From contig JADFZZ010000033.1 of NCBI GenBank assembly GCA_015232315.1, positions 1 through 56,074 of the forward strand: a stretch of DNA of 56,074 nt, in the 5' to 3' direction. Below are positions 53,949-56,074 of this stretch, piece after piece (position 1 is the stretch's first letter; each line of letters starts with the position of its first letter). Under the pieces are notes generated by a model. It saw only the letters and a list, made by a program, of their open reading frames with translations. It did no database searches and was not told the DNA's origin. A program made the position numbers and the translations under genes. The DNA comes from SAR324 cluster bacterium (GTDB taxonomy: Bacteria > SAR324 > NAC60-12).

Positions 53949-54090
53949 TAGTTTCTTAGAAGTTAAATTCTGCGCAAAATGGCAAAAGAATTTAGCCACA
54001 GAGTCACAGTGTCACAGAGTATGTTTTAAAAAATTCTCTGTGTCTTTGAGTCTCTGTGGCAAAAATTGGTTCCGGCTATGCCGGGTTAGG
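53949..54090 (+). repeat. dispersed repeat E, copy 2
   Basis: Near-identical to 45035-45176, placed directly upstream of the LpxR-like gene. A spurious upstream start of that gene at 54040 falls within this repeat. Confidence 0.85.
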
Positions 54091-54144
54091 GTTTGGCAAC
54101 ACCACTCCTTTTGTTACCTTGATTTGAACCAGGCCAATAATAAA

Positions 54145-55170
54145 ATGATCCAGTTTTGTAGGTATCCACAAATAGCAACCCTTAGGATTTATATTTATTT
54201 ATCCATAATTTTTATATCAATCGCTCCACCTCTTGCCTATTCCGATCAATCCAGCCAGCACATTTCCTATGAAAACGATTTTCTTAATTTTCGATGTGTC
54301 GATCGTGATGGTAAAAAAATCGGTCTAAAACTGCCCTATAAATGCTCCAATGAAGATGAATGGTATACTAGCGGATTTTTTTACGAGGGAAGGTATCAGA
54401 CCACCGAAAATGACTCCAATCACCACGTTGGTTTTGGTCTGGGGCAAATGATATTTACCCCGGCAGATTTGGAGAATCATGAAATTATCAAAAATGACAG
54501 ACCTTATGCAGGATGGCTTTATGGTAGTTATTTTCGGGAAACAGTGTCCAAAGAAAATTATGAAAGAAGAGAATTGGAGGTGGGTGTTCTCGGGAAATAT
54601 TCAAAAGCGGAAGAATTTCAAAATTTATTTCACCGAAAATTCTATGGAAACAGTAAAAACAATGCCCAGGGATGGAAACATCAAATTGGATCTGAACCGG
54701 GTTTAGTGGCTGTCTATCATTTTTCGGATTTAATGTTCAGAAGTAACGGCCATAAAATGGATCTGAACTGGTTATTTAATGGACGTGGCGGAAATATTTT
54801 TATTGATGCCGGCCTTGGAACAATAGTCAGGGTTAGCCTGTTCAATCCGCTTTTTCCGCTATTCTCTCCCTATTCGACACCTCATACCGTGATTTTCTTT
54901 TCATTGAAAACAGATGTTAAAATTGTGGGCTATGATGCTACTTTCCAGGGTGGTGGTTTGGATCGAGTGTTCAATCGTGGACGTGGCAGTCCTCACCATT
55001 ATGAATATCAAGACATAGTACCGATTGTAACCACTCTGGAAGGAGCACTGGCTCTAAAAAGCCATTATGGTGTATCCTTGGGTTATTCTGTGTTTCTGCG
55101 TAGCAAAGAATTTGTTGCTCAATCTGAAAATTCCCGATGGGGAAGAATCACTCTAACTGGTAGTTTCTAA
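54145..55170 (+). CDS. LpxR-family lipid A deacylase-like outer-membrane protein
   Basis: A 341-residue exported protein. The start MIQFCRYPQ at 54145 is followed by a signal peptide (hydrophobic core about 14-28, cleavage near LAYS). LpxR-type motifs: YENDFLNF near the N-terminus, DEWYTSGF, NDRPYAGWLYGS, and the EEFQNLFHRKF...GWKHQIGSEPG block containing the likely catalytic His. The protein ends in a strand with terminal Phe, as outer-membrane barrels do. LpxR removes the 3'-acyl chain of lipid A. It lies between inverted copies of repeat E, which suggests an acquired cassette. No clear ribosome site. Confidence 0.75.
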   Translation: MIQFCRYPQIATLRIYIYLSIIFISIAPPLAYSDQSSQHISYENDFLNFRCVDRDGKKIGLKLPYKCSNEDEWYTSGFFYEGRYQTTENDSNHHVGFGLGQMIFTPADLENHEIIKNDRPYAGWLYGSYFRETVSKENYERRELEVGVLGKYSKAEEFQNLFHRKFYGNSKNNAQGWKHQIGSEPGLVAVYHFSDLMFRSNGHKMDLNWLFNGRGGNIFIDAGLGTIVRVSLFNPLFPLFSPYSTPHTVIFFSLKTDVKIVGYDATFQGGGLDRVFNRGRGSPHHYEYQDIVPIVTTLEGALALKSHYGVSLGYSVFLRSKEFVAQSENSRWGRITLTGSF

Positions 55171-55279
55171 AATCTTTTGGTTCTCCAGATTTTTCAGTGT
55201 TTGACCAGCAATTCATCCGATATCATAAAACCCTCCGTGATCAAAAGAGAGCAATTCTTTGCCGCCAGTATCAGCATTC

Positions 55280-55413
55280 CCTAACCCGGCATAGCCGGAA
55301 CCAATTTTTGCCACAGAGCCACAGAAAATTTTTTAAAACATACTTTGTGATACTGCGACTCTGTGGTTAAATTCTTTTGCCATTTTCCGCAGAATTTAAT
55401 TTCTAAGAAACTA
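55280..55413 (-). repeat. dispersed repeat E, copy 3 (inverted, diverged)
   Basis: A 134-bp inverted copy, CCTAACCCGGCATAGCCGGA through TTCTAAGAAACT, with several substitutions and small deletions relative to copies 1 and 2. It closes the segment holding the LpxR-like gene. Confidence 0.8.
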
Positions 55414-55607
55414 ATGGGGTTCAATCGGGACATATCCATTTGTTGAAACTCTGGAAAATAAACAGAAATTTTCTATTGAAATATTCAAATATCTATATAT
55501 AAATTAATTATAAATAAAACAGTGAATTATTTTTTGAAAGGGGGGATTGAACTTTTCAGGAGGTGATTTACAAAATCCATTTAATGATCATTGATCGCAG
55601 GAGAAAT
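55414..55607. other. AT-rich upstream region of the HesB-like gene
   Basis: About 190 bases of AT-rich sequence without a gene. CAGGAGGTG at about 55557 is a good ribosome-site sequence but is too far (about 18 bases) from the nearest in-frame ATG at 55584; the AGGAG before 55608 is used instead. Confidence 0.4.
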
Positions 55608-55898
55608 ATGCAAATCAAAGTCACACCGACAGCCAGGCAGGAACTGGCTAAATTGTTAAAAGAAGATATTGGAAAGAAAGTTCGGATATTTATTGCAGGA
55701 TTTGGTTGAGGCGGGCCCCGCTGGGGCCTGGCTCTGGATGAGCCAAAAGACAGTGATGACACCATGCATGTAGATGGTATGGATATTATTTTGTCAAAAA
55801 GTGACAAACCGTATTTCCCTGATTCCGTAATAGATTTTGTGGAAAAAGGTTGGAGAAAAGGTTTTTATGTTCAACCCAGTTATGGGTATGCCTGCTAA
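55608..55898 (+). CDS. HesB/IscA-like selenoprotein (in-frame UGA = Sec34)
   Basis: A 96-residue protein if the TGA at 55707-55709 is read as selenocysteine. Upstream it reads MQIKVTPTARQELAKLL and VRIFIAGFG; directly after the UGA it reads GGPRWGLALDEPKDSDD and continues in frame to TAA at 55896, ending YGYAC. G-[C/U]-G-GP..GLALDEP is the hallmark of HesB-like proteins (A-type Fe-S carrier fold), of which a selenocysteine form is known in deltaproteobacteria. AGGAG lies 5 bases before the ATG. A GC-rich hairpin follows the UGA at once. A conventional gene caller would split or miss it. The role in Fe-S metabolism is inferred from the fold. Confidence 0.85.
55710..55732 (+). promoter_or_regulatory. 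bacterial SECIS-like hairpin
   Basis: Directly after the UGA, CGGGCCCC (55712-55719) pairs with GGGGCCUG (55723-55730), eight pairs including one G-U, around the three-base loop GCU. The loop starts with G, as bacterial SECIS elements require near the apex. The apical loop is 10 bases past the UGA, somewhat short of typical spacing. Confidence 0.65.
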
Positions 55899-55905
55899 TC
55901 CAAAA

Positions 55906-55930
55906 GAGGAGGGATCAATTCCCTCCTCTT
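55906..55930. terminator. bidirectional terminator hairpin
   Basis: A perfect nine-pair stem, GAGGAGGGA (55906-55914) with TCCCTCCTC (55920-55928), five-base loop TCAAT, eight bases after the HesB-like stop and before a converging gene end. The U-tract is poor, so it may work in both directions or only stabilise the ends. Confidence 0.65.
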
Positions 55931-55972
55931 CCATTCCAAAGGACAACATTTTTCCACCTGTGCAGGTGTATT

Positions 55973-56074
55973 TTACGCAACCAGTTTAAACTCAAGGACA
56001 TGATGCTTAAACCAGGTTGGATATTCCTGATTCTTTTTTAAGGCCGTCACCGAAGCCAAGGCCACACTCCCTGC
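55973..56074 (-). CDS. possible C-terminus of an unrecognised gene (partial)
   Basis: A minus-strand frame enters from the right edge for 33 codons and stops with TAA at 55973-55975; it reads ASVTALKKNQEYPTWFKHH and ends EFKLVA. Composition is protein-like and it converges on the terminator hairpin. Family unknown. Confidence 0.4.
   Translation of the reverse strand, partial: AGSVALASVTALKKNQEYPTWFKHHVLEFKLVA

What the first reader, a model, noticed from the sequence alone, without database searches (positions are those of the whole stretch)
55608..55898. HesB-like selenoprotein with in-frame UGA and adjacent SECIS-like hairpin
Seen: TGA in the centre of one conserved frame, FGUGGPRWGLALDEPKD, with an 8-bp GC hairpin right behind it whose loop starts with G, and the frame continues to a normal stop. 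Known: HesB-like selenoproteins occur in deltaproteobacteria. Inference: the organism incorporates selenocysteine, and this protein uses Sec at the position of a conserved Cys of the A-type carrier fold. The UGA-to-loop distance is short, which makes the element worth testing. The C-terminal YGYAC also ends in Cys, a possible Sec partner.
Basis: partly seen in the sequence, partly recalled or inferred. Interest (0 to 1): 0.7.

Follow-up and report, generated by a model that had tools for sequence, protein, structure and literature searches.

The report
Selenocysteine-containing HesB-like protein gene
A bacterial gene reads one stop codon as the rare amino acid selenocysteine; it belongs to a known group of iron-sulfur-type selenoproteins, and the RNA signal that directs this most likely lies just downstream of the hairpin first proposed.

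Summary
The gene looks real: window 55608-55898 (+) encodes a 96-residue A-type-carrier-like protein with in-frame UGA at codon 34 (55707-55709). The same genome carries selA, selB, selC (tRNA-Sec, anticodon TCA) and a selD with its own in-frame TGA. The 35 distinct TGA-bearing homologues collected, this one included, have the UGA at one aligned column, which matches Cys35 of IscA. HesB-like selenoproteins were already listed as known in 2005, so this is a divergent new member of a known kind.

The 8-bp GC hairpin directly behind the UGA (55712-55730) is probably not the SECIS. The next hairpin, 55729-55745 (UGGCUC-UGGAU-GAGCCA), meets the published bacterial SECIS rules, is complete in 28 of 35 homologues and shows strong compensatory change. 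The GC hairpin is complete in 4 of 35 and too close to the UGA.

Function is inferred. The fold matches IscA/SufA, but only one C-terminal Cys remains. This hints at a thioredoxin-linked selenol role for part of the group. Interest is modest.

The parts
55599..55603 (+). AGGAG, probable ribosome-binding site, 4 nt before the ATG
   Evidence: sequence as read
55608..55898 (+). HesB-like selenoprotein gene, 96 aa, ATG to TAA with UGA read as Sec
55707..55709 (+). UGA codon for Sec34, aligned with IscA Cys35
55712..55730 (+).
55729..55745 (+). predicted SECIS: stem UGGCUC/GAGCCA, loop UGGAU, 25 nt after the UGA
   Evidence: rules from PMC13188914
55893..55895 (+). codon of the C-terminal Cys96, possible partner of Sec34
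55904..55930 (+). perfect 11-bp inverted repeat (loop TCAAT) 5 nt after the stop codon; possible transcript end, without a T run
   Evidence: sequence as read; the scan did not list it

Best explanation
The gene encodes a genuine selenoprotein of the HesB-like group. The ribosome reads UGA 55707-55709 as selenocysteine: SelD makes selenophosphate, SelA converts Ser-tRNA-Sec to Sec-tRNA-Sec, and SelB carries it and binds the SECIS hairpin 55729-55745 through its GG-containing loop (UGGAU). The protein is predicted to have the IscA/SufA fold with Sec34 in place of the conserved Cys and one Cys at the C-terminus. Most likely it does selenol chemistry at that site with Cys96 as partner, either as a metal or Fe-S ligand or as a thiol-redox centre recycled by thioredoxin. 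The decoding step is well supported by sequence. The biochemical role is inference, and the confidence given is for the decoding claim.
For: Own genome: selB 386.6 bits against cut-off 242.25, selA 495 against 267.9, tRNA-Sec 62.4 against 47 with anticodon TCA, selD 363.3 against 125 with an in-frame TGA in its N-terminal CGU motif. In the 14 control genomes these models pass the cut-off in only 2, 1, 5 and 2 (same calls), so passing it is informative. In 52 genomes of the class, 18 of 54 matches carry 1 TGA and score at least 68.3 bits; the other 36 carry no stop and score at most 58.3 bits. The 35 distinct homologues, chosen for having TGA, have it at one aligned column. Hairpin 55729-55745: 93.3% of 210 cells paired against 80.5% in shuffles, covariation 0.454 against 0.205 (0 of 500 shuffles as high), slid versions at most 0.171; RNAalifold picks it unprompted. 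RNA-level constraint on codons: the loop Leu site is CTG in 32, TTG in 1, ATG in 1 and CTT in 1 of 35, against 120 of 249 other Leu codons ending in G; the stem codon before it ends in T in 33 of 35, against 112 of 568 elsewhere. Fold: best PDB matches IscA 1r94, 1s98, 1x0g and SufA 2d2a. TGA ends 12 of 34 long ORFs of the window, so it is not reassigned.
Against: No protein or selenium measurement. The score is below both curated NCBI cut-offs for HesB selenoproteins (56.8 against 85; 36.5 against 66.35). 2 of 35 homologues (L103, L108, one family) lack the hairpin. In isolation the window RNA folds preferentially into the GC hairpin, which shares 2 nt with the predicted SECIS, and the GC hairpin also beats its shuffles for covariation (0.231 against 0.141, 0 of 500). 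Only G000 among 31 genomes of its family has the gene, though many of those are incomplete drafts. The modelled C-terminus (93-96) has pLDDT under 50, so the Sec34-Cys96 distance is unknown.
Confidence: 0.94

Rival explanations
1. The GC hairpin right behind the UGA is the SECIS, or both hairpins act as one composite element.
For: It is stable (-14.7 kcal/mol), its loop starts with G, and some covariation is seen (0.231 against 0.141 shuffled, 0 of 500 as high), so it may help as a lower or accessory stem in the GC-rich members.
Against: 10 nt from the UGA, outside the 16-37 nt rule (PMC13188914, which says 'most' elements); complete in 4 of 35; 71.4% of cells paired against 93.3% for the second hairpin; two pairs fail in 14 and 19 of 35.
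Confidence: 0.07
2. The UGA is a true stop: the gene is a pseudogene or the base is a sequencing error.
For: Only this genome of its family carries the gene (1 of 31); draft assembly with the gene 176 bases from the contig end.
Against: The same TGA in 35 distinct sequences from many lineages, the frame conserved on both sides, and a selected SECIS hairpin.
Confidence: 0.02
3. The protein is a conventional Fe-S carrier (IscA/ErpA/SufA type) in which Sec simply replaces one Cys ligand.
For: Fold and profile match the A-type carriers; Sec aligns with Cys35 of IscA; members L018-L024 keep three or four Cys in the C-terminal tail.
Against: This protein has one C-terminal Cys instead of the C-x-C pair; in a same-class paralogue clade 5 of 7 have none in the last 22 residues; the genome has a separate Cys-type carrier (G000:C18). 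In Methanococcus maripaludis a disruption mutant of the HesB-like selenoprotein was not impaired in nitrogen fixation (unpublished observation cited in PMC11097638, passage).
Confidence: 0.4
4. It is a thioredoxin-linked selenol redox protein built on the A-type fold.
Against: 21 of 28 loci lack such a neighbour, this window included (the upstream gene is LpxR-like, and the sequence ends 176 nt after the stop codon). The neighbour class was noticed before it was counted. In G046 and G048 a sigma-54-type regulator gene lies closer, upstream on the same strand.
Confidence: 0.35

Closest known systems
HesB-like selenoproteins (NCBIfam TIGR01911 HesB_rel_seleno and NF038090 IscA_HesB_Se)
   Same: A-type-carrier domain, Sec at the conserved first Cys, Sec machinery in the genome; 90 such proteins in 86 bacteria in the 2016 table (PMC5029168, table passage)
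   Different: scores below both curated cut-offs; a single C-terminal Cys
IscA / SufA / ErpA A-type Fe-S carriers
   Same: fold (IscA 1s98 TM 0.79, SufA 2d2a TM 0.78) and position of the first ligand
   Different: Sec for Cys35; no C-x-C near the C-terminus
HesB-like selenoprotein MMJJ_08070 of Methanococcus maripaludis
   Same: named in the same family and identified by mutagenesis and 75Se labelling (PMC11097638 passage)
   Different: archaeal; not compared by sequence here

Membership tests
HesB-like selenoprotein | Fe-S_biosyn (PF01521) domain | tested here: met
   32.5 bits, cut-off 26.3
HesB-like selenoprotein | in-frame UGA at the conserved Cys of the domain | tested here: met
HesB-like selenoprotein | Sec machinery in the genome | tested here: met
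HesB-like selenoprotein | bacterial SECIS: loop 3-9 nt, stem 4-16 bp, G in the first two loop positions, 16-37 nt from UGA, MFE at or below -7.5 | tested here: met
   55729-55745: 5-nt loop UGGAU, 6 bp, G second, 25 nt, -9.2 kcal/mol (rules)
HesB-like selenoprotein (NCBI models) | score over the curated cut-off of NF038090 or TIGR01911 | tested here: not met
   56.8 of 85 and 36.5 of 66.35; hence called a divergent relative, not a member of these NCBI models
HesB-like selenoprotein | selenium in the protein | not testable with these tools
   needs 75Se labelling or mass spectrometry
IscA/SufA/ErpA carrier | three-Cys motif C...CxC (recalled) | tested here: not met
   Sec34 and a single Cys96
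IscA/SufA/ErpA carrier | equivalog score over cut-off | tested here: not met
   PRK13623 (ErpA) 33.6 of 117, sufA_proteo 27.2 of 136.2, IscA 22.6 of 150.6

The most novel reading that the evidence does not exclude
A branch of HesB-like selenoproteins, including this one, is not an Fe-S carrier but a thioredoxin-recycled selenol/thiol redox protein built on the A-type-carrier fold. In one bacterial class it has expanded into several paralogues, some of which keep Sec but have lost the C-terminal Cys.
Probability: 0.28. Interest if true: 0.5.

Novelty: new member of a known kind. Interest (0 to 1): 0.3.

Why it matters
HesB-like proteins are among the commonest bacterial selenoprotein families (sixth row of the 2016 table seen), yet a 2024 paper still says the function is not clear (PMC11097638 passage). 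This case places the SECIS of a divergent branch by covariation, shows that the stretch is selected at the RNA level, and offers a testable functional lead through the thioredoxin/thioredoxin-reductase neighbours. This gene falls below the curated cut-offs, so annotation may miss or truncate such genes (inference).

Tried and rejected
Pseudogene or sequencing error: rejected because the TGA is shared by 35 sequences and the flanking frame is conserved. UGA reassigned throughout the genome: rejected, since TGA ends 12 of 34 ORFs of at least 150 aa in the window. Known Rfam element: none of the 4 matches listed over 55000-56074 reaches its gathering score; the lowest E-value is CsrB with 0.12. 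Intrinsic terminator by simple scan: 1 weak site at 55955 (shuffle mean 0.9), and the perfect inverted repeat 55904-55930 was not listed. Conserved operon with Fe-S assembly genes: not seen among the neighbours I scanned (9, 10; most neighbours of the 35 genes were not scanned); one Rrf2-type regulator matches IscR below cut-off (88.9 of 207.55). Recent transfer: in the tree the window gene falls in a group of 16 with 13 same-class and 2 other rows, support 71/84, midpoint root, so no claim is made. Organism name: not determined. A search for SAR324 with selenoprotein gave 1 paper, but I have no result that places the window in SAR324. Plasmid records: 8 with distant matches under 60% identity, not followed up. 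A literature search for HesB, selenoprotein, thioredoxin reductase and Sec insertion sequence (123 papers with at least 3 of 4 terms, 15 listed) showed no title on a HesB-thioredoxin link; I read only the listing, so this is no proof of absence.

Post hoc step: the thioredoxin count was made after I had noticed the first cases. The expected number used all 65 and 32.

Full report
Observation. Read with TGA as Sec, window 55608-55898 (+) gives MQIKVTPTARQELAKLLKEDIGKKVRIFIAGFG-U-GGPRWGLALDEPKD...YGYAC, 96 residues, ATG to TAA. An AGGAG precedes the ATG and a perfect 11-bp inverted repeat follows the stop. Upstream is an LpxR-like outer-membrane gene ending at 55170. The window ends 176 nt after the stop codon, and the locus fetched from the genome ends at the same place.

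Sec machinery. The same assembly (5.25 Mb, 95% complete) has selB over its cut-off on C41, tRNA-Sec over its gathering score on C1, called tRNA-SeC with anticodon tca by ARAGORN, selA on C6 and selD on C28. In the 14 control genomes the same models pass their cut-offs in 2, 5, 1 and 2. The selD frame itself has a TGA at residue 10 of the stretch translated, in a CGU motif; that this is the SelD active site is recalled. It is thus a second probable selenoprotein of this genome. selA over its cut-off is found in 43 of 52 genomes of the class.

Family. Pfam Fe-S_biosyn matches over its cut-off. The nearest NCBI model is IscA_HesB_Se (56.8 bits, cut-off 85); HesB_rel_seleno is third (36.5 bits, cut-off 66.35). 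Both are under cut-off. All 21 members of alignment A1 match IscA_HesB_Se and 20 match HesB_rel_seleno at E 0.001. AlphaFold2 on 8 sequences gave mean pLDDT 80.2 and pTM 0.65, and Foldseek puts IscA and SufA first. A profile search aligns the Sec column with the Cys of the G-C-S-G motif of E. coli IscA (residue 35) and HI1723.

Homologues. In the unselected search of 52 genomes of the class, 18 of 54 matches carry 1 TGA and are the 18 best (68.3 bits and up), while 36 have no stop and 58.3 bits or less. In the search of 383 genomes at E 1e-14, 28 of 63 matches carry one TGA. G074 and G076 hold a Sec and a Cys copy near each other. In the tree the Sec and Cys copies of each of these loci group together (100/100 and 100/99). 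The window gene falls in a weakly supported group of 16 rows, 13 of them same-class (71/84). Within its own family the gene is in 1 of 31 genomes, many of them incomplete.

SECIS. The published bacterial rules are loop 3-9 nt, stem 4-16 bp, G in the first two loop positions, 16-37 nt from UGA, MFE at or below -7.5 kcal/mol (PMC13188914, passages seen; the same passage says that some elements do not fit). Hairpin 55729-55745 meets all of them: 5-nt loop UGGAU, 6 bp, G second, 25 nt, -9.2. The GC hairpin 55712-55730 has 10 nt. On the gap-free alignment of 35 (A4) RNAalifold chooses only the second hairpin. Counts for it: 196 of 210 cells paired (93.3%), 26 cells changed on both sides against 5.3 in shuffles, covariation 0.454 against 0.205, 0 of 500 shuffles as high, best slid version 0.171. 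All 6 pairs form in 28 of 35; L018, L019, L022 and L110 have 5, L051 has 4, L103 has 3 and L108 has 1. One member, L085, changes U-A to G-C at a pair whose 3' base lies in the codon that is Glu in most others, giving Ala instead. The GC hairpin has 200 of 280 cells paired (71.4%), covariation 0.231 against 0.141 (0 of 500 as high), and is complete in 4 of 35. It may be an accessory stem; the two hairpins share 55729-55730. Alone, the stretch 55699-55750 folds with the GC hairpin. I infer that a ribosome with UGA in the A site covers that part and frees the second hairpin.

Codon-level test. At the loop Leu site the codon is CTG in 32, TTG in 1, CTT in 1 and ATG in 1 of 35. Among 249 other Leu codons of the same stretches 120 end in G. 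The codon before it ends in T in 33 of 35, against 112 of 568 Ala, Thr, Val and Ser (TCN) codons elsewhere. Selection on the RNA is therefore visible without folding, though related sequences are not independent.

C-terminus. All 27 members with U-(G/S)-G-P carry Cys in the last 22 residues. L047 (UIGP) has none. Of the 7 UKGS/UTGI paralogues, 5 have none, L106 has one near the end, and L107 has one 20 residues from the end. The paralogues form one clade (99/100).

Neighbours. At the density of these genes (65 and 32 in 78.75 Mb) 0.096 would be expected; the Poisson chance of 5 or more is about 6e-8. The test is post hoc and ignores gene clustering. In G046 and G048 a sigma-54-type regulator gene lies closer, upstream on the same strand. 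The G046 locus continues with an Rrf2-family regulator, a MetA-like gene (below cut-off) and an O-acetylhomoserine sulfhydrylase-type gene. 21 of 28 loci show no thioredoxin-type neighbour.

Function. The Sec-decoding step rests on strong sequence evidence. For the role two models remain: a metal or Fe-S ligand site as in IscA, or a thioredoxin-recycled selenol. In M. maripaludis the HesB-like selenoprotein was identified by mutagenesis and 75Se labelling, its function is called not clear, and a disruption mutant was not impaired in nitrogen fixation (PMC11097638, two passages; the last point is an unpublished observation cited there).

Known before. HesB-like selenoproteins are in surveys of 2005 and 2006 (PMC1242214, PMC1794560, passages), 2016 (PMC5029168, table passage) and 2022 (PMC9312934, table passage). 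The finding is thus a new member of a known kind, with the SECIS re-placed.

Noticed in passing
G000:C28:50700-51623 (L053): selD of the same genome has an in-frame TGA in its N-terminal CGU motif, so it is probably a selenoprotein too.
   Followed up: partly
L049, L050, L051 (beside the paralogue genes): A gene with MtxA-like (magnetotaxis protein) domains, shown by Pfam for L050, has homologues beside three HesB-like paralogues of the same class.
   Followed up: partly
L032, L049, L050, L051, L105, L106, L107: Paralogue clade with U-K-G-S or U-T-G-I that keeps the TGA; 5 of 7 lack Cys in the last 22 residues.
   Followed up: partly
L109, L110: Sec and Cys versions of the gene near each other in G074 and G076, a natural pair for studying the Sec/Cys exchange.
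   Followed up: partly
L103, L108: Two homologues with the TGA but without the conserved hairpin; their SECIS may differ.
   Followed up: no
window 54040-55170: LpxR-like outer membrane protein gene (Pfam PF09982, 152.3 bits).
   Followed up: no
L116 (G041:C23): Homologue locus with a RicR-like copper-sensing repressor gene (below cut-off) and a gene that looks like a P-type ATPase (by eye).
   Followed up: no
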